NCBI GenBank assembly: GCA_943788755.1
Contig: CALSRM010000002.1
Location: 155,505-219,504 of the forward strand
From: an uncultured Flavobacteriales bacterium
Lineage (GTDB): Bacteria; Bacteroidota; Bacteroidia; Flavobacteriales_D; Parvicellaceae
DNA length: 64,000 nucleotides
Direction: 5' to 3'
Part shown: positions 45,505 through 62,270 of the stretch, in pieces
Layout: every line of letters begins with the position of its first letter
Position numbering within the stretch: position 1 is the first letter of the stretch
Translations under genes and position numbers: made by a program
The notes under the pieces: model-generated
Told to the model about the DNA's origin: nothing
The model's database searches: none
Seen by the model: the letters and a program-made list of their open reading frames with translations, nothing else

Positions 45505-48309
45505 TTATTTAGTAATTTGAATTTTAGTAGTAGATTGAGCATTGCTGTTTGCTATTCTCAGCAAGTACATGCCTGAGCTAAGGTTAGAGATATCAACCAT
45601 ATTTGATATATTCGATATTCTTTCTGCTAAAATCTGTTTTCCATTTAAGTCAGTTATGGTTAAATTAAATAATTCATTACTGTTTAGTGCAATATTCAAC
45701 ACATTTACTGCTGGGTTAGGATATACCAGTAAGTCCAAATTATTTTTTTCTTGGATTGATGTTGTTAGATTTGGTAACAATACTCCATCAATTACATGCA
45801 CAGTTCCATTGCCAGCAAATAAGTCTGGAGTGGTAACATTAGCATCATTAATCATTACCCCAGCAGAAAGATCTACAACTATGTCTTGTCCATTCAGAGT
45901 GGCAACAGGTCCGTTTGTAAGTGCCGAAGAAGGAACATCGCTTCCAACAACATGATACAATAAAATATCTGATAAGTCTGGAGAAGCTAACAAATCCGCT
46001 GCAGAAATATTCAACGCTGCTAAAGCTTCTGTAAACGCTGCATCTGTTGGCGCAAAAACCGTTAATTCAGAAAAAGGATTTGTTAGTGCAGGTAATAATC
46101 GTGCTTCAATTACAGCTGCTACCAGTGTGGTATGGTCTGGACTGTCTATTGCAATATCAGCTACTGTTTCATTAGGCAGCACTACTCCGTCTAAGACATG
46201 CACTGCTCCGTTTCCAGCTTGCACGTTGGGAACTGTTACTTGGGCTTGATTTACAAACACGTCTGCACCGTCGATAGTAACTTTAAGTGTATTGGTAGTG
46301 CTCAAAGGTTCCGCTATCATACCATTCGAAAGACTAGTTGACAGTACCTCCTCTCCTAGAACATGATACAATAAAATATCTGATAAGTCTGGAGAAGCTA
46401 ACAAATCCGCTGCAGAAATATTCAACGCTGCTAAAGCTTCTGTAAACGCTGCATCTGTTGGCGCAAAAACCGTTAATTCAGAAAAAGGATTTGTTAGTGC
46501 AGGTAATAATCGTGCTTCAATTACAGCTGCTACCAGTGTGGTATGGTCTGGACTGTCTATTGCAATATCAGCTACTGTTTCATTAGGCAGCACTACTCCG
46601 TCTAAGACATGCACTGCTCCGTTTCCAGCTTGCACGTTGGGAACTGTTACTTGGGCTTGATTTACAAACACGTCTGCACCGTCGATAGTAACTTTAAGTG
46701 TATTGGTAGTGCTCAAAGGTTCCGCTATCATACCATTCGAAAGACTAGTTGACAGTACCTCCTCTCCTAGAACATGATACAATAAAATATCTGATAAGTC
46801 TGGAGAAGCTAACAAATCCGCTGCAGAAATATTCAACGCTGCTAAAGCTTCTGTAAACGCTGCATCTGTTGGCGCAAAAACCGTTAATTCAGAAAAAGGA
46901 TTTGTTAGTGCAGGTAATAATCGTGCTTCAATTACAGCTGCTACCAGTGTGGTATGGTCTGGACTGTCTATTGCAATATCAGCTACTGTTTCATTAGGCA
47001 GCACTACTCCGTCTAAGACATGCACTGCTCCGTTTCCAGCTTGCACGTTGGGAACTGTTACTTGGGCTTGATTTACAAACACGTCTGCACCGTCGATAGT
47101 AACTTTAAGTGTATTGGTAGTGCTCAAAGGTTCCGCTATCATACCATTCGAAAGACTAGTTGACAGTACCTCCTCTCCTAGAACATGATACAATAAAATA
47201 TCTGATAAGTCTGGAGAAGCTAACAAATCCGCTGCAGAAATATTCAACGCTGCTAAAGCTTCTGTAAACGCTGCATCTGTTGGCGCAAAAACCGTTAATT
47301 CAGAAAAAGGATTTGTTAGTGCAGGTAATAATCGTGCTTCAATTACAGCTGCTACCAGTGTGGTATGGTCTGGACTGTCTATTGCAATATCAGCTACTGT
47401 TTCATTAGGCAGCACTACTCCGTCTAAGACATGCACTGCTCCGTTTCCAGCTTGCACGTTGGGAACTGTTACTTGGGCTTGATTTACAAACACGTCTGCA
47501 CCGTCGATAGTAACTTTAAGTGTATTGGTAGTGCTCAAAGGTTCCGCTATCATACCATTCGAAAGACTAGTTGACAGTACCTCCTCTCCTAGAACATGAT
47601 ACAATAAAATATCTGATAAGTCTGGAGAAGCTAACAAATCCGCTGCAGAAATATTCAACGCTGCTAAAGCTTCTGTAAACGCTGCATCTGTTGGCGCAAA
47701 AACCGTTAATTCAGAAAAAGGATTTGTTAGTGCAGGTAATAATCGTGCTTCAATTACAGCTGCTACCAGTGTAGTATGGTTTGGACTGTCTATTGCAATA
47801 TCAGCTACTGTTTCGCTGTCTAGGAGAACAGAATTGATAGAGTGCACATATCCGTTCGAGCCCGTTAAGTCAATTCCATTTACTTCCGCTTGATTTGCAA
47901 ATACGCTGGTTCCATTAATTGTTAACTTCAATGTATTGTCATCATGAAGAGGTGTTACGATTTGACCATTCGAAACATTGGAGGACGGAACAGAACCTGA
48001 AAGCACATGATATTGCAATATGTTAGACAAATCAGTAAGTGCTAAAACATCGTTAATGTCTGTTAAGCCAAGATCAATAATTAATTGGTCAAATGCTGCG
48101 TTATCTGGGGCGAATACCGTGTATTGGCTTGTGTTCATATCCAATACTGCATCCAACCCTTCTTGATCTAAAGCAGCTGTTAAATACGTGTGATCTGGAC
48201 TTGCCGCTATCACATCATAAACCGTAGTTTGAGCAAATGTGGAACCGCCTGACAAGACTATCGTCGATGCCATTAATAAGTTCTTAATTGAGAATAATTG
48301 TTTTTTCAT
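45505..48309 (-). CDS. Six-domain fasciclin (FAS1) surface protein with T9SS type A sorting domain
   Basis: A 934-residue protein. It has a signal peptide (1-27) and FAS1 domain 1 (28-166, divergent). Four nearly identical 137-residue FAS1 units follow (167-303, 304-440, 441-577, 578-714), then a sixth domain (715-848) whose first half is identical to the others and whose second half differs. A type A T9SS sorting domain (849-934; LVYPNPAVNVLNI, SSGMYLLRI) ends it. FAS1 domains (e.g. LTVFAPTDAAF, ILLYHV, VLDGVVLP) mediate cell adhesion. The whole region is one transcript flanked by its own promoter and terminator. The recent internal duplication is the main oddity. Confidence 0.93.
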   Translation of the reverse strand: MKKQLFSIKNLLMASTIVLSGGSTFAQTTVYDVIAASPDHTYLTAALDQEGLDAVLDMNTSQYTVFAPDNAAFDQLIIDLGLTDINDVLALTDLSNILQYHVLSGSVPSSNVSNGQIVTPLHDDNTLKLTINGTSVFANQAEVNGIDLTGSNGYVHSINSVLLDSETVADIAIDSPNHTTLVAAVIEARLLPALTNPFSELTVFAPTDAAFTEALAALNISAADLLASPDLSDILLYHVLGEEVLSTSLSNGMIAEPLSTTNTLKVTIDGADVFVNQAQVTVPNVQAGNGAVHVLDGVVLPNETVADIAIDSPDHTTLVAAVIEARLLPALTNPFSELTVFAPTDAAFTEALAALNISAADLLASPDLSDILLYHVLGEEVLSTSLSNGMIAEPLSTTNTLKVTIDGADVFVNQAQVTVPNVQAGNGAVHVLDGVVLPNETVADIAIDSPDHTTLVAAVIEARLLPALTNPFSELTVFAPTDAAFTEALAALNISAADLLASPDLSDILLYHVLGEEVLSTSLSNGMIAEPLSTTNTLKVTIDGADVFVNQAQVTVPNVQAGNGAVHVLDGVVLPNETVADIAIDSPDHTTLVAAVIEARLLPALTNPFSELTVFAPTDAAFTEALAALNISAADLLASPDLSDILLYHVLGEEVLSTSLSNGMIAEPLSTTNTLKVTIDGADVFVNQAQVTVPNVQAGNGAVHVLDGVVLPNETVADIAIDSPDHTTLVAAVIEARLLPALTNPFSELTVFAPTDAAFTEALAALNISAADLLASPDLSDILLYHVVGSDVPSSALTNGPVATLNGQDIVVDLSAGVMINDANVTTPDLFAGNGTVHVIDGVLLPNLTTSIQEKNNLDLLVYPNPAVNVLNIALNSNELFNLTITDLNGKQILAERISNISNMVDISNLSSGMYLLRIANSNAQSTTKIQITK
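45949..47811 (-). repeat. 411-bp in-frame tandem repeat within the fasciclin gene (~4.5 copies)
   Basis: A 411-bp (137-codon) unit is repeated with exactly constant spacing: the marker CATGATACAA (or its start) occurs at 45951, 46362, 46773, 47184 and 47595. Copies are virtually identical at the DNA level including synonymous positions; the copy nearest the N-terminus differs by a few bases (for example SPNHTT instead of SPDHTT). This implies very recent expansion or gene conversion, and copy number may vary or be misassembled. Confidence 0.95.
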
Positions 48310-53469: not shown

Positions 53470-54387
53470 ATGGTACACGGTACTCACAACGCTGAAGCAG
53501 ACGAGCGTAACAAGGATATTAAGATATTTATTAACGGAGAGTTATTGCATCGGGATGATGCTAAGATTTCAGTTTTTGATAGTGGGTATTTAGTAGGAGA
53601 TGGAGTTTGGGAAGCTTTGAGGTTGCATAATGACAAATTAGTTTTTTTGGATTTACACCTGAAAAGAATGTGGGAAGCAGCCGCTTCAGTAGGGATGACG
53701 TTACCATTTTCAAAGGAGGAGTTAACCGGTAATATTTGGAAAACTGTTAAAGCCAACGACATGCACGACAATGTGCACGTACGAACGATGGTTACTCGTG
53801 GTATAAAAAAAACACCTTCTCAGGATCCTCGTTTAACAATATCAGGACCCAATGTGGTGATAATAGCGGAGCATAAAAAAGCCGCTCAAGTTAGTCTGGA
53901 CACAGGAATTATTTTGCATACATCAACCATTAGACGAGGGTCTCCTGATTATTTAGATCCAAGGTTAAACTGTCACAGTAAATTGCACGAAGTTCAAGCA
54001 TTAATACAAGCCATGGAAGCGGGTGCTGACGAAGCATTAATGTTGGATGCAAATGGGTTTGTTGCAACTTGTAATGCTACTAACTTTTTTATCACCAGAG
54101 GAAAAGAAGTTTGGACATCTACAGGACAATACTGTATGAATGGAATAACTAGAGCGAAAGTAATTGAAGCTTGCGAAAAGAATGGAATTGTATGCCGTCA
54201 AAAGAATTTCTCATTATATGATGTTTACGGAGCAGATGAAGCATTTGTGACAGGAACTTTTGGAGGTTTAACGCCCGTTACCAAAATCGACGGAAGAGTA
54301 ATTGGTTCAGGAAAAACTGGAGAATTCACAAAACATCTTCGAGAACTATACAATGAATTAATCCATCGAGAAATTCTGAGTTCATGA
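53470..54387 (+). CDS. Class IV PLP aminotransferase (branched-chain/D-amino-acid type)
   Basis: A 305-residue protein. It has an opening strand region with FINGELLHRDDAKISVFDSGYLVGDGVWE, the candidate PLP lysine Lys171 in NCHSKLHEVQA, and GADEALMLDANGFVATCNATNFFI at ~186-208. In the family the last segment reads 'G.V.ETNATN.F', with a Glu that contacts the pyridine nitrogen; here that Glu is Thr200. The ITRAKVIEAC region near 226 is normal. The substitution may change PLP chemistry. It overlaps the sulfotransferase-like gene by 4 nt, so the two proteins probably act together. Confidence 0.85.
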   Translation: MVHGTHNAEADERNKDIKIFINGELLHRDDAKISVFDSGYLVGDGVWEALRLHNDKLVFLDLHLKRMWEAAASVGMTLPFSKEELTGNIWKTVKANDMHDNVHVRTMVTRGIKKTPSQDPRLTISGPNVVIIAEHKKAAQVSLDTGIILHTSTIRRGSPDYLDPRLNCHSKLHEVQALIQAMEAGADEALMLDANGFVATCNATNFFITRGKEVWTSTGQYCMNGITRAKVIEACEKNGIVCRQKNFSLYDVYGADEAFVTGTFGGLTPVTKIDGRVIGSGKTGEFTKHLRELYNELIHREILSS

Positions 54388-55118
54388 AATCTAAAGATGG
54401 GATAACGCGGATATGCCTTTGGTCTGGTCCTAGAAATATTTCTACAACTTTGATGTATTCATTTGCACAAAGGGATGATATTGTAGTTGTAGATGAACCT
54501 TTGTATGCCTCTTATCTGTCCAGTACCAACGCTAAGGAGTATCATCCAGGGGCATCGGAAATAATTGCATCTCAAGAGAATGATGGCGAAAAAGTGATTG
54601 ACTGGATGATGGGAAGCCACGACAAGCCCCTAGTTTTTTTTAAAAATATGACACATCATCTTTTAGATTTGGATCGATCATTTATGAAAGATGTGGTAAA
54701 CGTTATTTTAACACGCGACCCAAAAGAAATGATTCCTTCATTTGTTAAAGTAATTGAAAATCCAACGATTGGTGATATTGGCTATGCAGATCATACGAAT
54801 CTCCAAAATTATTTTGAAGAAAATAATATCCCGTACATCGTGTTGGATTCAAAATTCATATTGCAAAATACTAAAGGAGTATTGCAACAGTTTTGCGATT
54901 TGATAGGAGTTGATTTTGACGAAAACATGTTAAAGTGGGAAAAGGGAGCTAGAAAAGAAGATGGTATTTGGGCAAAGTATTGGTACGATAATATCCATAA
55001 GTCCATTGGTTTTATGGATTACAAACCCAAGTCAGAAAGGTTTCCAGACAGATACCAGTCATTGTTGCAATCCTGCAAAGGGCATTACGGAAAACTTTTG
55101 AAAAAAGCGCTACGATAA
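54384..55118 (+). CDS. Sulfotransferase-like nucleotide-binding protein
   Basis: A 244-residue protein starting in the last codons of the aminotransferase gene. It has a P-loop-like motif SGPRNISTTLMYSFAQR near 14-30 and a second motif NVILTRDPKEMIPSF near 109-123. These match the 5'- and 3'-phosphate-binding elements of sulfotransferase-family proteins. The acceptor is unknown. The tight coupling with a class IV aminotransferase is also known as fused or neighbouring genes in other organisms, including some plant proteins as far as I recall. Whether it transfers sulfate, phosphate or only binds nucleotide is open. Confidence 0.72.
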   Translation: MKSKDGITRICLWSGPRNISTTLMYSFAQRDDIVVVDEPLYASYLSSTNAKEYHPGASEIIASQENDGEKVIDWMMGSHDKPLVFFKNMTHHLLDLDRSFMKDVVNVILTRDPKEMIPSFVKVIENPTIGDIGYADHTNLQNYFEENNIPYIVLDSKFILQNTKGVLQQFCDLIGVDFDENMLKWEKGARKEDGIWAKYWYDNIHKSIGFMDYKPKSERFPDRYQSLLQSCKGHYGKLLKKALR

Positions 55119-55135
55119 GCTGATATTGGAGTACC

Positions 55136-55828
55136 TTATTTATTTATGTAATTCTGAAGCTCTGTAATCTTGGTAGAATCTTGAAATACCCCTCCATAGT
55201 AAGATGTGATAGTGGTTGAGGTGTTATCTTTTACTCCTCGAGAAGAAACACATAAATGTTTTGCATCAATTATAACTGCTACGTCTTTGGTGTTCAAAAT
55301 TTCCTTCAAATCTTCTGCTATTTGATTTGTTAATCGTTCCTGAACTTGCGGGCGATTTGCATAATATTGCACAATACGATTAAGTTTTGACAGTCCAATA
55401 ACTTTTCCAGACGAAACGTATGCTATATGAGCTTGCCCCGTGAATGGAACAAAATGATGCTCACAGTTAGAGTAAAAGGTTATGTTCTTTTCAATCAACA
55501 TCTGATTGTACCGATACTTATTTTCAAAAAGTGAAATTTTAGGTTTGTTAGCAGGGTTTAATCCTGAGAAGATTTCTTCAACATACATTTTGGCAACCCT
55601 TTTTGGAGTGTCTTTTAAAGAATCGTCAGTAAGGTCTAAACCTAAAACATCCATTATTTCATTAAATAGATGAGAAATTTTTTCCTTTTTTTCCGCATCC
55701 GACATCTCAAATGGATTTGCTTTCATAGGGGTTTCTAGACCTGTTGATATGTGGTCATCTCCTATATCATCATATGAGAAATCAGAGGTTTCATTGTAAT
55801 CTTCAATTAGTAAGTTGTCCTTTTTCAA
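55136..55828 (-). CDS. folE: GTP cyclohydrolase I
   Basis: A 230-residue protein with an acidic N-terminal extension of ~60 residues and a full type I GTP cyclohydrolase domain. It has the zinc/active-site segment YSNCEHHFVPFTGQAHIAY near 128-146, GLSKLNRIVQYYANRPQVQERLT near 156-178, and the second cysteine in AKHLCVSSRGV. The enzyme opens the GTP imidazole ring to make dihydroneopterin triphosphate for folate, queuosine or biopterin synthesis. It shares the neighbourhood with a 6-pyruvoyl-tetrahydropterin-type gene at 56.9 kb. The upstream intergenic stretch 55829-56073 is AT-rich and divergent. Confidence 0.95.
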   Translation of the reverse strand: MKKDNLLIEDYNETSDFSYDDIGDDHISTGLETPMKANPFEMSDAEKKEKISHLFNEIMDVLGLDLTDDSLKDTPKRVAKMYVEEIFSGLNPANKPKISLFENKYRYNQMLIEKNITFYSNCEHHFVPFTGQAHIAYVSSGKVIGLSKLNRIVQYYANRPQVQERLTNQIAEDLKEILNTKDVAVIIDAKHLCVSSRGVKDNTSTTITSYYGGVFQDSTKITELQNYINK

Positions 55829-56073
55829 TTTGTTTTATTTTAAGGTTTGACGTTATACTTTGTGTTCAGATAGTTTTGAAATAACAAATAATCGTTTTGA
55901 TAAAAAATCTATTTGGTGCAAAGTTACATAATTGTTTATCAAAAAAGCGAAAATACTAAACAAAACTATTTTTTTGTGTTAATTATATGCAGAGCTATTG
56001 TACATTTACCAAACTAAATAAGAAGATGTCATATCAGCCTAAGGTTCTAGGAAATATTAATGAATAAAATACT

Positions 56074-56838
56074 ATGTCCAAGTTACCGAAAGAATACAGG
56101 TTTTTAGATTTTTCAGATTATGGAAGACCTGTGGCACGTATTATTGCTAATTCCTTGAAAGAAACTTCTTACACCCCGATTGATGTTACTTTGTGGTTTA
56201 TTATTTCGGGTATAATTGCAATAGTTTGCATTCTTTGTGAGCACTATTGGTTTGCAGCTTTATTTTTATTGCTGAAATCAATCTTGGATGCAGCGGATGG
56301 AGAATTAGCGAGAGTGAAAAAAACCCCTTCGCACACAGGTAGATACTTAGATTCAGTTGCAGATATCATATTAAATTTTTTCATTTTCTCTGCTCTTTGG
56401 TACTGCACGGAAGCTAGTATAGTAATTACTTTTTTCGCTTTTTTAGGAATTCAATTGCAAGGTACTTTGTACAATTATTATTATGTTATTTTGAGGAATA
56501 ATGTGAATGGTGACACAACAAGCAGAGTCTTCGAATATAATGCACCTAACGCCTTGGGTAATGAAAAACAAAAAAATGTAGATTTACTGTTTCGAATTTA
56601 CAAAGGGCTTTATGGTTTATTTGACAGGGTTATTTATTTGCTAGATTCGAATGCTCCAAAATCAAAAAAAATACCTAAATTTTTGATGACAGCGTTGTCA
56701 ACTTTTGGTCTTGGATTTCAGCTTTTGATTATCAGTTTAATGCTGGTTCTTGGATTAAAAGATTATATATCCACTTTTTTTCTTTGTTATTCTCCAATGA
56801 TTTTTGTTTTTATTGGTTTGAGAAAGATCCTCCAGTAA
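56074..56838 (+). CDS. CDP-alcohol phosphatidyltransferase family protein
   Basis: A 254-residue membrane protein with about six spans. The complete CDP-alcohol signature D-x2-DG-x2-AR-x8-G-x3-D-x3-D is at residues 72-97: Asp72, Asp75-Gly76, Ala79-Arg80, Gly89, Asp93 and Asp97 are all present. Such enzymes displace CMP from a CDP-linked lipid or CDP-alcohol to make phospholipids. The acceptor (glycerol-3-phosphate, inositol, serine or other) cannot be read from the sequence. It sits between folE and queD-like genes, though it probably has a separate role. The C-terminal spans are shorter than in most members. Confidence 0.86.
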   Translation: MSKLPKEYRFLDFSDYGRPVARIIANSLKETSYTPIDVTLWFIISGIIAIVCILCEHYWFAALFLLLKSILDAADGELARVKKTPSHTGRYLDSVADIILNFFIFSALWYCTEASIVITFFAFLGIQLQGTLYNYYYVILRNNVNGDTTSRVFEYNAPNALGNEKQKNVDLLFRIYKGLYGLFDRVIYLLDSNAPKSKKIPKFLMTALSTFGLGFQLLIISLMLVLGLKDYISTFFLCYSPMIFVFIGLRKILQ

Positions 56839-56864
56839 TATTGAAAATCAGAAATCTTACTGCA

Positions 56865-57278
56865 TTAATGATGGGGATATTCAACATAGTTTCTTGCAGT
56901 TTCGTAGAGCTTTATTTTCAGATCTAGATCTTCATCTAATTCAGCTTCGAGAATATTATAGATTACCATTGCAATATTTTCTGCAGTCGGATTTAAATGT
57001 TTAAATTCCTCCGTATCTAAGTTGAGGTTTTTGTGGTCAAACCTATCCAGCACTTTTTCTTTAATTAAATCAGACAGAACTTTTGCATCTATCACATAGC
57101 CGGTAGAGGGGTCGCAAATTCCAATAACTTTAACTTCCAAGTCGTAGTTATGTCCATGGTAATTTGGATTATTGCATTTACCAAAAATCTTTTGATTTTT
57201 TTCCTCACTCCAATTAGGATTGTGCAATCTGTGGGCAGCGTTAAAGTGTTCGCATCGGACAATGGCTGTTTTGTTCAT
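56865..57278 (-). CDS. queD: 6-carboxytetrahydropterin synthase / 6-pyruvoyl-tetrahydropterin synthase
   Basis: A 137-residue T-fold protein. Zinc-binding histidines are His16 (FNAAHRL) and His41/His43 (NYHGHNY), catalytic Cys35 is in FGKCNNPN, and a conserved Asp-His pair occurs in LDRFDHKNLN; ending 'LYETARNYVEYPHH' contains the Glu of the pterin-binding site. QueD converts dihydroneopterin triphosphate, the product of FolE, to 6-carboxy-tetrahydropterin for queuosine; PTPS-type homologues make biopterin. Its coexistence with folE in the same 2-kb region supports a pterin route. The 285-bp upstream gap to the permease gene is AT-rich with no clear promoter. Confidence 0.92.
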   Translation of the reverse strand: MNKTAIVRCEHFNAAHRLHNPNWSEEKNQKIFGKCNNPNYHGHNYDLEVKVIGICDPSTGYVIDAKVLSDLIKEKVLDRFDHKNLNLDTEEFKHLNPTAENIAMVIYNILEAELDEDLDLKIKLYETARNYVEYPHH

Positions 57279-57563: not shown

Positions 57564-58862
57564 ATGAAAGCTCCAGATAAAATAGGATTTTGGCCCACCA
57601 CTTCTTTAGTAGTAGGAAACATGATTGGTTCGGGTGTTTTTTTACTTCCAGTTGCATTAGCTTATTACGGATTGAACAGTGTTTTTGGTTGGATCTTCTC
57701 TGCATTTGGAGCAATTTTATTGTCAATCATTTTCGGCTATTTAAGTAAGCATTTAAAAAATTCAGAAGGCGGTCCTTACGCTTTCACCGTATTTGGACTC
57801 GGGAGGTTTCCAGGGTATTTAGTTGCTTGGGGGTATTGGATTTCAATTTGGTCTACAAACGCTGCTATTGCAGTAGCTTTGGTAAGTTACCTGAGTGTAA
57901 TATTTCCAATTGTTGGTGCTAGCGCTCTCAATTCTATTATTACCGGTTTGGCTTTTGTTTGGTTTTTTACATGGATAAATACCAAGCAAATAAAAACGAT
58001 TGGAATTGTACAGCTTTTAACTACTGTTCTTAAAGTAGCTCCATTAATTTTTTTAGCAATCGTTGGAATTTTTTATGTGGAACTATCGAATTTAGAAATT
58101 TGGGCAGCAGAAGCTTCTGTTAGTTTTGAAAGTATAACTGCAGCAACTACTTTGACTTTTTTCGCATTTCTCGGAATGGAAAGTGCTACAATTCCTTCAA
58201 AGGGAATTGCAAATGCTGAGAAAATCATAAAAAAATCAACTATTTACGGGACCATTTTTACAGCAGCTCTATACATCTTTAGTTTTCTAGTCGTTTCAAG
58301 TGTAATTCCGCCAGATACGCTAAAGAATTCGAGTGCGCCATTTGCAGATACAGCCAATGATTTATGGGGAGGAGTAGGGAAGATGATATTTGCTTGGGGT
58401 GCTGTTATCGCTACGTTGGGAGCATTAAATGGTTGGATTTTGATACAAGGGCGAATTCCTTACAGTGCCGCAAAAGACAATCTATTTCCAAAAATATTTG
58501 GTAGGGTTAACAAAAATGATTCTCCGGTAATTGGAATAATAATCTCGAGCATATTGGCTTCTGCATTAATGATGTTTAACTATAGTAAGTCGTTGGTTGA
58601 CGCGTTTTCTTTTATGATGAAACTTTCCACATTATCGGTTCTTACCCCGTACCTTTTTTCCATAGCTACATTTTGGATTATGGTTAAAAAAGACAAAGGA
58701 AGTTTAAAAAACAAAGCCAATGTTCTGCTAGCATTACTAGCGTTTGTATTTTCTATTTGGGTAATAATAGGTTGTGGGCAAGAAGTAGTTTTTTATGGGT
58801 TTATTCTATTAATGATTGGAATTCCTTTTTATATTTATATAAATAATAGTAGTGATGATTAA
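57564..58862 (+). CDS. APC-family amino-acid/polyamine transporter (AdiC/CadB-like)
   Basis: A 432-residue integral membrane protein with 12 predicted spans. The opening FWPTTSLVVGNMIGSGVFLLPVALA and the EGGPYAFTVFGLG segment near 69-81 match basic amino-acid/polyamine exchangers such as AdiC and CadB; the GNMIGSGVF helix breaker is the substrate site. Its stop codon overlaps the start of the Rieske oxygenase gene (58855), so the two are translationally coupled. Cationic amino acids or amines are the likely cargo. The third gene, a kinase/PLP-enzyme fusion, follows 41 nt after the oxygenase. Confidence 0.9.
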   Translation: MKAPDKIGFWPTTSLVVGNMIGSGVFLLPVALAYYGLNSVFGWIFSAFGAILLSIIFGYLSKHLKNSEGGPYAFTVFGLGRFPGYLVAWGYWISIWSTNAAIAVALVSYLSVIFPIVGASALNSIITGLAFVWFFTWINTKQIKTIGIVQLLTTVLKVAPLIFLAIVGIFYVELSNLEIWAAEASVSFESITAATTLTFFAFLGMESATIPSKGIANAEKIIKKSTIYGTIFTAALYIFSFLVVSSVIPPDTLKNSSAPFADTANDLWGGVGKMIFAWGAVIATLGALNGWILIQGRIPYSAAKDNLFPKIFGRVNKNDSPVIGIIISSILASALMMFNYSKSLVDAFSFMMKLSTLSVLTPYLFSIATFWIMVKKDKGSLKNKANVLLALLAFVFSIWVIIGCGQEVVFYGFILLMIGIPFYIYINNSSDD

Positions 58863-59949
58863 CGATTTGGAAATAAATGAGAACATTGAAGAGGCGGAAA
58901 CCTTACCGGCAATATTTTACCAAAGTCAAGAGGTTTTCGATTTAATTAGAGAACGTGTCTTTATTCGCTCTTGGCACTGGTTGGGAATGGAAAAAGACTT
59001 GTTGCCTTTTTCAGAATCCGTTTTTCCTTTGACTTTATTCGATGGGTATTTAGACGAACCAATTGTTCTTGTTAAAAATGCGAAGGATGAAATTATAACA
59101 TTAAGTAATGTTTGTACACACCGTGCTAATATAGTTGTTGAGCATGCGGGGAGGCAAAAGCAGTTAGCTTGTATGTATCATGGAAGAAGATACAACCTGG
59201 ATGGAACTTTCAAAATGATGCCTGAGTTTAGTGAAGCGAAAAACTTCCCGCGACCATGTGATGATTTACATTTATTTTCATCTTCCTTATTCAAGGGGCA
59301 TTTATTTTCAAGCTTAGATAAAGCATTTGACTTTGAAAAAGTTACACGTGTGCTGCAAGAGCGAATAGGGTTTTTACCGCTGGAAGATTTTAAGCTGAAT
59401 GAAACAATTTCAAAAGATTATTTGATTAATTGTAATTGGGCATTGTACTGTGACAATTACTTAGAAGGGTTTCATATTCCTTTTGTGCACCCGGATTTAA
59501 ATGATGCGCTCGATTATGGTAGCTATGAAACGGTGCTTTATGAGTATTGTAATTTACAAATAGGATATTCATCTGGAGGAGAAGAAGTGTTTGACTTACC
59601 TGAGGGTCATCCGGATTTGGGAAAACAAGTTGGGGCGTATTATTACTGGGTTTTTCCAAACATGATGTTTAATTTTTATCCATGGGGATTGTCAATAAAT
59701 ATTGTAAAGCCTGTTTCAATAAATAGAACAAGAGTTTCTTTTTTCTCCTATGTGTATGATGAATCAAAACTTTCTGCAGGAGCTGGAGCCTTGCTAGACA
59801 AAGTTGAAAGAGAAGATGAGTATGTTGTAGAAGGTGTTCATAAAGGACTGAAGTCTAGGTTTTATAAATCGGGTCGCTTTTCTCCCACAAAAGAGAAGGG
59901 AGTACATCATTTTCAGCGCTTATTATTGAAATTTTTGAAAGAAAATTAA
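58855..59949 (+). CDS. Rieske-type ring-hydroxylating/N-demethylating oxygenase, catalytic subunit
   Basis: A 364-residue protein. The Rieske [2Fe-2S] ligands are Cys87-x-His89 and Cys106-x2-His109 (16 residues between the pairs). The mononuclear iron site follows: the bridging Asp200 and His207 and His212 in CDNYLEGFHIPFVHPDL. The C-terminal third contains EDEYVVEGVHKGLKS and FSPTKEKGVHHFQ, as in quaternary-amine-type oxygenases (choline monooxygenase, CntA). It overlaps the APC permease by 8 nt. No ferredoxin or reductase gene is nearby. Substrate is presumably an amine or amino acid delivered by the permease. Confidence 0.9.
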   Translation: MINDLEINENIEEAETLPAIFYQSQEVFDLIRERVFIRSWHWLGMEKDLLPFSESVFPLTLFDGYLDEPIVLVKNAKDEIITLSNVCTHRANIVVEHAGRQKQLACMYHGRRYNLDGTFKMMPEFSEAKNFPRPCDDLHLFSSSLFKGHLFSSLDKAFDFEKVTRVLQERIGFLPLEDFKLNETISKDYLINCNWALYCDNYLEGFHIPFVHPDLNDALDYGSYETVLYEYCNLQIGYSSGGEEVFDLPEGHPDLGKQVGAYYYWVFPNMMFNFYPWGLSINIVKPVSINRTRVSFFSYVYDESKLSAGAGALLDKVEREDEYVVEGVHKGLKSRFYKSGRFSPTKEKGVHHFQRLLLKFLKEN

Positions 59950-59990
59950 GGATTGATTTGTTTTATTTTTTGATTAGCGAAGTGCAAATT

Positions 59991-62270
59991 ATGACTGTTT
60001 TACAAGAGTTACTCCAAACTGAATTCAATTTTGAAGCCATCGAGATAAAAAAAATTGGAGGCTACGACAATGCAAATTATAGCGTAATCGGTGATTCCAG
60101 TAAATACATCTTTAAAACATATGTCTTTAGCAAGGATGTGCTAGCTCACCTTGAAGCAGAAAACGAGGTTCTTTTAAGTTTGGATTGCAATGACAAATGT
60201 TTGTTTCCTATTCCTCAAAAGTTTTCAGATGGATCTTACTTGAAGTTGATGGAAATTGCTGGTGAACAACATATTTGTAGAATGTTGAACTTTATCGATG
60301 AAAAGTTCTTTGCCGAAGTTGACCATTCACATGCGTTATTAACTTCTTTTGGTGGCTTTTTGGCAGGATTGAATTTACAACTTCAAAAAGCAACAAGTTA
60401 TGTTCTTCAAGCGCGCGAATGCGAATGGGATTTACAATACTATCATTTTAGTTTAGCGTACATTAAAGATATTCCAAATGCTCATGATAGGGGTATTGTT
60501 GAATATTTCTTTCAGCATTTTGAAGCCCAAGTTTTACCGCGTATTTCTGATTTTCGTCGTCAAATAATTCACGGTGATTATAATGAAGGAAACGTTTTGG
60601 TAAAGAACAATCGAGTAGTGGGAGCAATAGATTTTGGAGACCTAACTTATGCACCATTGGTGTATGAATTGGGTATAGCATTGGTTTATAGTTGTTACGA
60701 TAAATACGAGCCATTGAAGTGGATAGCTTCTGCGTTAAAAGGGTATAATGCCGTAATTCCGATTGAAGAAAAAGAAGTCGAAATACTGTATTATGTGATG
60801 GTTGCTAGACTTGCGGTAAGTGTATGTAGATCGGCACATTCTAGAAAAACAGATCCTGACAATGCACATGCTTTAAATAGCGAAAAACATTCCTGGAAGT
60901 TACTAAACTACTTATTGCGTATTGGTCCAATTGCTACTGAGAAAATGCTGCGTGAAGTTTGCGAATTACCCAAGAGAAAAGAGCTTTTGGCAGATGTAGA
61001 GTTACAAAAACGCTTACAAGTTTTAAGTCCGCTCTTATCGGTTAGTTACAAAAATCCAATTGTAATGGAAAAAGCAGCTTTTCAATACATGTATGATAGT
61101 GCTGGAAATTCAATTTTGGATGCGTACAATAATATACCACATGTAGGGCATTGTCATCCCAAGGTAGTTGCTGCGGGACAGATTCAGATGGCTTCTTTAA
61201 ATACAAATACGCGGTATTTATACCCTGAGTTATCAGGATATGCAGAGCACTTGTTGTCTAAGTTTCCAAAATCGCTTACTAAGGTGTTTTTTGTTAATTC
61301 GGGTAGTGCAGCAGCCGATTTAGCATACAGAATGGCGCATGCGCATACAAAAAGAAAAAGCGTTATGGTTATGGAGCATGGTTACCATGGCAATACCCAA
61401 ATTGGAATGGAAATCTCTGATTATAAGTTTAGTAATAAAAAGGGTGCTGGGCAGCAAAATCATGTTTTGAAAGTTGCAATACCCGATACGTATAGAGGAG
61501 TTTATGGAAGTGAAAACCCTTATTCCGGATTAAAATATGCCCAAGACGCGATTGCTCAAATGAAAGAATTTGGGAATACGATAGGAGCATTTATAACAGA
61601 GCCAATAGTTGGCTGTGGAGGACAGGTTCCGCTAGCTGCAGGCTATCTAAAAACATTATACCCAGCAATAAGAGAACAAGGAGGAGTTTGTATAAGTGAC
61701 GAAGTTCAGACTGGTTTTGGTCGTTTAGGAGATTTTTTTTGGGGTTTTGAGGCACACGATGTTGTGCCTGATATTGTTATTTTGGGTAAACCTATGGGCA
61801 ATGGTCATCCGATGGGTGCTGTTGTTGTTACGGATAAAATTTCAGCATCTTTTTCGAAAGGCGTTGAGTTTTTTAGCTCTTTTGGAGGGAATCCGGTTTC
61901 TTGTGCAATTGGTAAAGCTGTTTTGGAGGTTATTGAAGAAGAGAACCTCCAAGAAAATGCCAAGGAAGTTGGCGATTATTACCAGGCGCTGTTAGAAGGA
62001 TTAAAAAGTCGATTTAATATAATTGGTGATATAAGAGGTTCGGGGTTATTTATTGGAGTAGAAATAGTTAAAGAAAATTCTAACGAACCCAATAAAGCTT
62101 TGGCTCAGCACATCAAAAATGAATTGAGAAATGCCAATATTTTGATAAGTACAGATGGGCCTTTCGATAACGTGCTTAAGTCTAAACCTCCTTTGTGTTT
62201 TTCTAAAGAGAATGCCAAAGAGGTGGTTGATTGTTTGGAGAGGGTATTAGTAATAGCTAATAGCTATTGA
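59991..62270 (+). CDS. Fusion of APH-type small-molecule kinase with class III PLP phospho-lyase-like domain
   Basis: A 759-residue bifunctional protein. Residues ~1-330 are an aminoglycoside/hydroxylysine-type kinase: Lys42 in YIFKTY, catalytic Asp196 in IHGDYNEGN and the metal Asp214 in IDFGDL. Residues ~355-759 are a class III aminotransferase-fold domain, with [36 protein letters not shown] and PLP Lys600 in [10 protein letters not shown]. That last motif is typical of the ETNPPL/PHYKPL phospho-lyases. In animals, separate proteins of these families phosphorylate hydroxylysine and then remove ammonia and phosphate (or act on phosphoethanolamine). I use the ATG at 59991; an upstream TTG at 59958 gives a non-family extension. 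Confidence 0.88.

What the first reader, a model, noticed from the sequence alone, without database searches (positions are those of the whole stretch)
57564..62270. Candidate amine-catabolic operon: APC permease, Rieske oxygenase and kinase/phospho-lyase fusion
Three co-directional genes are tightly packed (8-nt overlap, then 41 nt). The permease resembles cationic amino-acid exchangers. The oxygenase has a complete Rieske and iron site of quaternary-amine type. The last gene fuses an APH-type kinase to a class III PLP domain with the GKPMGNGHP lysine motif of phospho-lyases. In animals, hydroxylysine kinase and phosphohydroxylysine (or phosphoethanolamine) phospho-lyase are separate members of the same two families. 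A logical route is uptake, oxidation or demethylation, phosphorylation, then loss of ammonia and phosphate to give an aldehyde. I know of no description of this exact trio, but have not searched.
Basis: partly seen in the sequence, partly recalled or inferred. Interest (0 to 1): 0.8.

Follow-up and report, generated by a model that had tools for sequence, protein, structure and literature searches.

The report
Operon for breaking down lysine-like amines
Three neighbouring genes of a Bacteroidota bacterium appear to take up a lysine-like amine, oxidise it, and strip ammonia and phosphate from an amino alcohol; each gene type is known, but this combination, and the oxygenase subfamily in it, have no tested function that I could find.

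Summary
In detail: three tightly packed, co-directional genes encode an AdiC-like APC permease, a Rieske oxygenase with complete iron sites, and an APH kinase fused to a class III PLP domain. The PLP domain belongs with the ammonio-phospho-lyases (human ETNPPL and Arthrobacter A1RDF1 are clearly the nearest solved relatives). The trio was found only in the window's genus, and the fusion mostly stands alone elsewhere. But the parts are linked more widely: this Rieske subclade has an AdiC-like permease beside it in 21 of 39 loci examined, an ADI/DDAH-like hydrolase in 10 and glutaryl-CoA dehydrogenase in 6; it is over-represented in genomes that carry the fusion; and it became the fusion's direct neighbour twice. 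Best reading: salvage of lysine-type cationic amino acids, the fusion acting on 5-hydroxylysine (kinase, then loss of NH3 and phosphate to aminoadipate semialdehyde, AASA), the Rieske on lysine or N6-methyl-lysine. No substrate is shown. The own genome has AASA dehydrogenase, but so has nearly the whole order, and the other lineage with the Rieske-fusion pair lacks it, which counts against this. A kinase/phospho-lyase fusion is not new; the Rieske subfamily's role and the grouping appear to be.

The parts
57564..58862 (+). APC-superfamily permease, 432 aa, AdiC-like basic amino acid/polyamine exchanger type
   Evidence: TIGR00905 284 bits (cut-off 409), AdiC in PDB 221.6 bits
58855..59949 (+). 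Rieske non-haem iron oxygenase, 364 aa from ATG (GTG at 58852 also in frame), CntA/GbcA-like with Tyr203, Glu205, His208, His213, Asp322 (numbered from the GTG)
59991..62270 (+). Fused kinase/phospho-lyase, 759 aa (mechanical ORF from TTG 59958, 770 aa)
60057..60692 (+). APH (hydroxylysine-kinase-like) domain of the fusion: HGDYNEGN and DFGD motifs; Asp207, Asn209, Asn212 and Asp225 in 78 of 78 rows (770-aa numbering)
61050..62249 (+). Class III PLP (ammonio-phospho-lyase) domain of the fusion, Lys611 in GKPMGNGHP (770-aa numbering)

Best explanation
The operon salvages lysine-type cationic amino acids. The AdiC-like permease imports the cation. The fusion phosphorylates the hydroxyl of a vicinal amino alcohol, most likely 5-hydroxylysine, and its PLP domain eliminates phosphate and ammonia, leaving 2-aminoadipate 6-semialdehyde (AASA). 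The Rieske enzyme, of a Bacteroidota subfamily often found beside such permeases, attacks the side chain of lysine or an N6-methylated lysine next to the nitrogen, in the manner of carnitine monooxygenase, which would also give AASA plus the free amine. AASA dehydrogenase, encoded elsewhere in this genome, would feed aminoadipate into the glutaryl-CoA route. Shown here: gene anatomy, families, catalytic residues, co-occurrence and neighbourhoods, presence of AASA dehydrogenase. Inferred: every substrate and the order of steps.
For: PLP domain nearest to ETNPPL (394 bits) and A1RDF1 (308), next solved chain 197; model Z 51.8 and 49.6 against 45.9 for the next. Permease nearest to AdiC. AdiC-like permease (>=38% identity) within 3 kb of the Rieske in 23 of 98 loci (14 of 78 sample loci, 9 of 20 from fusion genomes); 21 of the 23 lie in one clade of 39 loci. 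ADI/DDAH-like hydrolase in 11 of 98 (2 of 78, 9 of 20); glutaryl-CoA dehydrogenase 66-87 nt from the Rieske, same strand, in 6 of 98 (2 of 78, 4 of 20). Of Rieskes from fusion genomes outside the genus, 17 of 20 fetched fall in that clade, against 11 of 46 class-sample rows, Fisher p 5.5e-6. Fusion of any type (E <= 1e-80) in 10 of 52 Rieske-positive against 3 of 169 other class genomes. Fusion-Rieske adjacency in two lineages, in opposite order, whose fusions are not sisters. Own genome: AASA/piperidine-6-carboxylate dehydrogenase 808 bits over cut-off 730 and a saccharopine dehydrogenase C-domain. In animals 5-hydroxylysine goes by HYKK and PHYKPL to AASA (passages).
Against: G338, the only other lineage seen with the Rieske-fusion pair, has no AASA dehydrogenase at E <= 1e-150 in an assembly rated 100% complete; 139 of 150 genomes of the order have one, so that gene is also no specific marker. 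The trio is limited to one genus. 21 genomes outside the genus carry fusion and Rieske without seen adjacency, though some contigs are short. 55 of 78 fusion genomes have no Rieske at E <= 1e-60, and 42 of 52 Rieske-positive class genomes no fusion. The glutaryl-CoA dehydrogenase link is phylogenetically narrow (four of six loci are Eudoraea or Muriicola) and the one NCBIfam glutaryl-CoA dehydrogenase model hit is below its cut-off (276 against 470). The ADI/DDAH-like and ArcD-like neighbours point to arginine as much as to lysine, and none of these extra neighbours is in the window's operon. Co-occurrence tests are not corrected for kinship. No dedicated reductase was found.
Confidence: 0.4

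Rival explanations
1. Sequential route: the Rieske makes the fusion's substrate, by 5-hydroxylating lysine or by N-demethylating a methylated hydroxylysine; the fusion then phosphorylates it and eliminates phosphate and ammonia.
For: Direct adjacency in two independent lineages; clade-specific co-occurrence; Rieskes of this iron-site type oxidise or N-dealkylate cationic amines (passages).
Against: Rieskes of the clade often occur without a fusion (7 of 11 class genomes, 8 of 9 order genomes outside the genus), and 55 of 78 fusion genomes lack the Rieske, so each can work alone. No Rieske lysine hydroxylase is known to me.
Confidence: 0.25
2. Ethanolamine/choline route: the Rieske N-demethylates a choline-type amine, the fusion turns ethanolamine into phosphoethanolamine and then acetaldehyde, ammonia and phosphate.
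For: Nearest solved PLP relative is phosphoethanolamine phospho-lyase; the Rieske resembles CntA/GbcA; G338 lacks AASA dehydrogenase.
Against: The permease scores 42 bits to the ethanolamine permease model against 284 for basic amino acid antiporters; recurrent neighbours of the Rieske are amino-acid enzymes. No PHYKPL structure is among the 60 of 187 rows listed, so ETNPPL being nearest does not discriminate.
Confidence: 0.13
3. Arginine or methylarginine route: the module serves guanidino amino acids, the Rieske hydroxylating or demethylating an arginine derivative.
For: ADI/DDAH-like hydrolase in 11 of 98 Rieske loci, CtlX in L161; NhaC/ArcD-like carrier convergent with the Rieske in 14 of 98 loci, all of the window's family.
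Against: None of these genes is in the window's operon; by family chemistry the fusion needs a primary amine beside a hydroxyl, which arginine derivatives lack.
Confidence: 0.1
4. Chance neighbours: the fusion is a solitary salvage gene that landed behind an APC-Rieske pair without functional link.
For: 2 of 80 public fusion loci have the Rieske beside them, both in one genus.
Against: Second independent joining in G338 and clade-specific co-occurrence.
Confidence: 0.12

Closest known systems
Human ETNPPL (AGXT2L1) / PHYKPL (AGXT2L2) ammonio-phospho-lyases with HYKK kinase
   Same: PLP half in the same family as ETNPPL; kinase half an APH-family kinase as HYKK is (recalled)
   Different: Separate proteins in animals; here one 759-aa chain; substrate untested
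Arthrobacter aurescens A1RDF1 phospholyase (PDB 5g4i)
   Same: PLP domain 38% identical, Z 49.6
   Different: The solved 446-aa chain has no kinase domain
NCBIfam PRK06148/PRK06149 (APH - M23 - class III PLP, ~1000 aa)
   Same: Same end domains, 753 bits to PRK06148
   Different: M23 domain absent; below cut-off 1128
CntA carnitine monooxygenase / GbcA (group V Rieske)
   Same: Tyr203, Glu205, ligand spacing; best solved match over the full length
   Different: Cys206/Cys209 pair replaced by Gly (76 of 77) and Ile (74 of 77); only 97 bits; no reductase gene beside it in the window
AdiC arginine/agmatine antiporter
   Same: Full-length similarity, 221.6 bits
   Different: Below NCBIfam cut-offs; exchange partner unknown

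Membership tests
Ammonio-phospho-lyase (ETNPPL/PHYKPL/A1RDF1) | Closer to known phospho-lyases than to aminotransferases | tested here: met
   394 and 308 bits against 197 for the next; Z 51.8/49.6 against 45.9
Ammonio-phospho-lyase (ETNPPL/PHYKPL/A1RDF1) | GKPxGNGHP-type lysine motif as aligned in 6tor and 5g4i | tested here: met
   Lys, Asn, His, Pro in 78 of 78 rows, 76 loci plus the window protein twice; absent from the other class III hits checked
Ammonio-phospho-lyase (ETNPPL/PHYKPL/A1RDF1) | Release of NH3 and phosphate from a phosphorylated amino alcohol | not testable with these tools
   enzyme assay needed
Hydroxylysine kinase (HYKK) | APH domain with HxDxxxxN and DFG motifs | tested here: met
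   Pfam APH 74.5 bits over 23.2; motifs; fold not tested by structure
Hydroxylysine kinase (HYKK) | Phosphorylates 5-hydroxylysine | not testable with these tools
   no HYKK structure among the 11 PDB hits, best homoserine kinase
Group V (quaternary ammonium) Rieske oxygenase | Bridging Glu205 and aromatic residue at 203 | tested here: met
   Glu 77/77; Tyr 69, Phe 8 of 77, roles
Group V (quaternary ammonium) Rieske oxygenase | Cys-X-X-Cys beside the iron (reported for some members only) | tested here: not met
   Gly206 in 76, Ile209 in 74 of 77
Group V (quaternary ammonium) Rieske oxygenase | Acts on a quaternary amine | not testable with these tools
   substrate unknown
Glycine betaine monooxygenase GbcA (NF058607) | Score over curated cut-off 670 | tested here: not met
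   78.5 bits
PRK06148 APH-M23-AT3 | M23 domain and score over 1128 | tested here: not met
   752.9 bits, no M23; M23 type shown in four of four relatives tested
Basic amino acid/polyamine antiporter (TIGR00905) | Score over 409 | tested here: not met
   284 bits, best of the 24 models hit

The most novel reading that the evidence does not exclude
A Bacteroidota-centred Rieske subfamily attacks the side chain of lysine or N6-methyl-lysine, an activity not known to me for Rieske enzymes, and in some lineages works in one operon with a one-chain hydroxylysine kinase/phospho-lyase, so that several protein-derived modified lysines are funnelled to AASA.
Probability: 0.25. Interest if true: 0.72.

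Novelty: new variant of a known kind. Interest (0 to 1): 0.5.

Why it matters
If true, it gives a bacterial route for amino acids such as hydroxylysine and trimethyllysine, which come from collagen and other modified proteins, and a testable function for a widespread Rieske subfamily to which I found none assigned (53 of 395 class genomes at E <= 1e-60). It also offers a one-chain kinase/phospho-lyase for studying substrate hand-over.

Tried and rejected
Trio as an ancient conserved unit: rejected; 2 of 80 fusion loci, both of the genus. A conserved operon around the fusion elsewhere: not found; immediate neighbours differ between groups. AASA dehydrogenase as a specific marker: rejected, 139 of 150 genomes of the order have it. 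Dedicated Rieske reductase: PF00970 gives two places in the own genome, a PaaE-like reductase beside an enoyl-CoA-hydratase-like gene and a 430-aa frame that I take for NqrF from recall; other reductase types were not searched. The single-sequence fold of the fusion failed (pLDDT 33.5); with an alignment it worked (85.7). The VIA list covers model residues 315-759, so the kinase half is untested by structure. Ten paper searches (listings with starts of abstracts) showed no description of this trio or of a lysine-acting Rieske; passages only were read; the 2012 paper on HYKK and the phospho-lyases and two structure papers are not held. Recalled, from no call: that the glutaryl-CoA dehydrogenase chain 1sir is human, and the chemistry required by phospho-lyases beyond the passages read.

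Limits of the counts: Fisher tests ignore kinship. The 80 fusion loci are the best 80 of 109 confirmed; two of them were not held. The 169 'no Rieske' genomes are those of the 198 that one search does not list as positive; one search prints only part of its negatives, so I could not check that each was searched. Of the 52 Rieske-positive class genomes six have no clade assigned (G071, G173, G402, G420 not fetched; L176 gave no Rieske ORF; L210 too short for the tree) and are counted among 'other Rieske'. In the identity comparison (>=56%) 16 of 76 fusion genomes outside the genus stand against 9 of 394 class genomes, or 12 of 394 if the partial matches G071, G420 and G177 are counted, p 3e-7. 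One fusion genome with Rieske (G585) was not fetched; L151 gave no Rieske ORF. L216 and L217 are one genome.
Full report
Anatomy. The window lies in a 3.17 Mb genome (contig C2:155505-219504) whose nearest public relatives are Flavobacteriales MAGs. The three genes are intact and co-directional: permease 57564-58862, Rieske 58855-59949 (8 nt overlap), fusion 59991-62270 (41 nt on). Upstream, a gene of the 6-pyruvoyl-tetrahydropterin synthase family is divergent, 285 nt away. Pattern scans for promoters and terminators are at chance level, so 'operon' rests on packing alone.

Fusion. Pfam finds APH (74.5 bits) and Aminotran_3 (268.1 bits) in one chain. Against the PDB the PLP half is nearest to ethanolamine-phosphate phospho-lyase (394 bits) and Arthrobacter phospholyase A1RDF1 (308 bits); the third chain is a racemase at 197 bits. 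An AlphaFold model made from 35 sequences (pLDDT 85.7, pTM 0.83) matches these two at Z 51.8 and 49.6 (rmsd 1.6 and 1.9 A over 393 and 415 residues) before the next row at 45.9. The Lys, Asn, His and Pro of the phospho-lyase motif are in 78 of 78 aligned rows (76 loci and the window's protein twice); the full motif is in none of the other class III proteins checked. The kinase half keeps the catalytic Asp and the DFG motif in 78 of 78. The NCBIfam relative PRK06148 has an extra M23 domain and its cut-off is not met here (752.9 against 1128 bits); the M23 type was seen in four of four longer relatives tested. A 2025 review (PMC12138971, passages) seems to cite the 2012 discovery of hydroxylysine kinase and its lyases as a gene-fusion example, judged from its reference numbering, and a Herbaspirillum operon with a gene annotated hydroxylysine kinase next to a class III-type aminotransferase (annotated 4-aminobutyrate aminotransferase) is described (PMC13275390, passages). 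So the fusion is a member of a known kind.

Rieske. Its best solved match is carnitine monooxygenase CntA, over the full length (96.6 bits). The residue numbers happen to coincide: Tyr203, Glu205, His208, His213. In CntA Tyr203 makes the cation-pi contact and Glu205 bridges the two iron centres (PMC7948474, passages). Of 77 rows, the window's included, 77 have Glu205 and 77 an aromatic at 203 (69 Tyr, 8 Phe), but the Cys pair of CntA is absent. A cationic substrate is therefore likely; a quaternary one is not proved.

How far is the arrangement conserved? The fusion is common: 109 public places were confirmed and the best 80 kept, 69 of them Bacteroidota by record title. Permease and Rieske flank it in two of these 80, both of the window's genus. 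In the genus, three of four genomes show the trio, one of them with a Rieske frame broken in the assembly; the contig of the fourth (88% complete) ends inside the Rieske gene, and no fusion was found in it. In the order, the fusion (E <= 1e-80) is in 8 of 150 genomes and the Rieske (E <= 1e-20) in 32 of 150. One genome of another family, G338, has fusion and Rieske 42 nt apart in the opposite order, without the permease. A tree puts its fusion with two others and apart from the window's (support 97 and 99), while both Rieskes lie in one clade of 23 rows (99). The junction therefore seems to have formed twice.

Links of the Rieske. I examined 98 Rieske loci: 78 from order and class samples and 20 from fusion genomes. 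An AdiC-like permease (>=38% identity) lies within 3 kb in 14 of 78 and 9 of 20; 12 of the 14 sample cases have gaps of at most 100 nt, co-directional or divergent. 21 of the 23 lie in one clade of 39 loci, of which 17 were chosen because their genomes hold the fusion. An ADI/DDAH-like hydrolase is near in 2 of 78 and 9 of 20; it scores well under the NCBIfam arginine deiminase and dimethylargininase cut-offs. A glutaryl-CoA dehydrogenase lies beside the Rieske in 2 of 78 and 4 of 20, four of the six being Eudoraea or Muriicola; of its ten best PDB chains nine are named so (444 to 368 bits), then 264, but the one NCBIfam glutaryl-CoA dehydrogenase model hit is below its cut-off. CtlX lies between in one. 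In the window's family a NhaC/ArcD-like carrier overlaps the Rieske convergently in 14 loci. None of these extra genes is in the window's operon.

Co-occurrence. Of 78 fusion genomes that could be searched, 23 carry the Rieske (E <= 1e-60); two are the genus. Of the other 21, 20 were fetched and 17 fall in the permease-linked clade (support 91), against 11 of 46 class-sample rows (p 5.5e-6). Conversely, in the class sample a fusion of either type is in 4 of 11 genomes with a Rieske of this clade, 6 of 41 with another or unassigned Rieske, and 3 of 169 without; three of the four were tested and are of the longer M23 type. In the order sample only G338 of nine clade genomes outside the genus has a fusion. 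The tests ignore kinship.

Mechanism. By family chemistry a kinase joined to a phospho-lyase needs a vicinal amino alcohol with a primary amine. With a cationic-amino-acid permease, 5-hydroxylysine fits best; in animals HYKK and PHYKPL turn it into AASA (PMC5200902, passages). The own genome encodes AASA/piperidine-6-carboxylate dehydrogenase over the curated cut-off and a saccharopine dehydrogenase C-domain, so AASA would be usable. Hydroxylation of a lysine-like side chain next to nitrogen gives AASA plus the amine, as plants do with homoarginine (PMC11018352, passages); a CntA-like Rieske could do this to lysine or trimethyllysine. Because Rieske and fusion each occur often without the other, I favour parallel entry into one pool over strict sequence.

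Against. AASA dehydrogenase is near-universal in the order (139 of 150) and missing in G338 of all places. ADI/DDAH-like and ArcD-like neighbours fit arginine too. The nearest solved lyase acts on phosphoethanolamine. No dedicated reductase was found. No substrate is established.

Verdict. A real, small, probably catabolic operon of known enzyme types in a genus-level combination, with a Rieske subfamily of unassigned function as the most interesting part.

Noticed in passing
window 45505-48309 (-): Predicted 934-aa protein with several nearly identical repeats that look fasciclin-like by eye (no family search).
   Followed up: no
window 53470-55118 (+): Class IV aminotransferase overlapping a sulfotransferase-domain gene by 4 nt; relatives of the second gene also in L036, L037 and L105.
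   Followed up: no
window 55136-57278: GTP cyclohydrolase I and a 6-pyruvoyl-tetrahydropterin synthase-family gene on the minus strand, with a CDP-alcohol phosphatidyltransferase on the plus strand between them.
   Followed up: no
L036 6873-7004 and 6995-7960 (same genome as L221): The Rieske gene of this genus relative is split over two reading frames in the assembly: sequencing error or a broken gene.
   Followed up: partly
L153-L156, L211-L220: In the window's family the Rieske's 3' end overlaps a convergent NhaC/ArcD-like carrier gene by 3-29 nt in 14 loci.
   Followed up: partly
L173, L174, L182, L187, L190: Another Rieske subclade near a different APC-type permease (22-27% to P0001), an SDR-like gene (not seen in L182) and an amidohydrolase-like gene; the last two labels are by eye, the family search failed.
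   Followed up: no
L161 5767-9927 (-): CtlX (352 bits, cut-off 334), AdiC-like permease and ADI/DDAH-like hydrolase in a row behind the Rieske.
   Followed up: partly
L257-L260, L262, L265, L267, L269, L271: The ADI/DDAH-like hydrolase beside the Rieske is seen in 9 of 20 fusion genomes but only 2 of 78 sample loci; unexplained.
   Followed up: partly
L052 and L055: Nearly identical fusions in MAGs labelled Neomarinimicrobiota and Auribacterota; binning contamination is likely.
   Followed up: no
G338 (L143): Genome of the order rated 100% complete without AASA dehydrogenase although it has the Rieske-fusion pair.
   Followed up: partly
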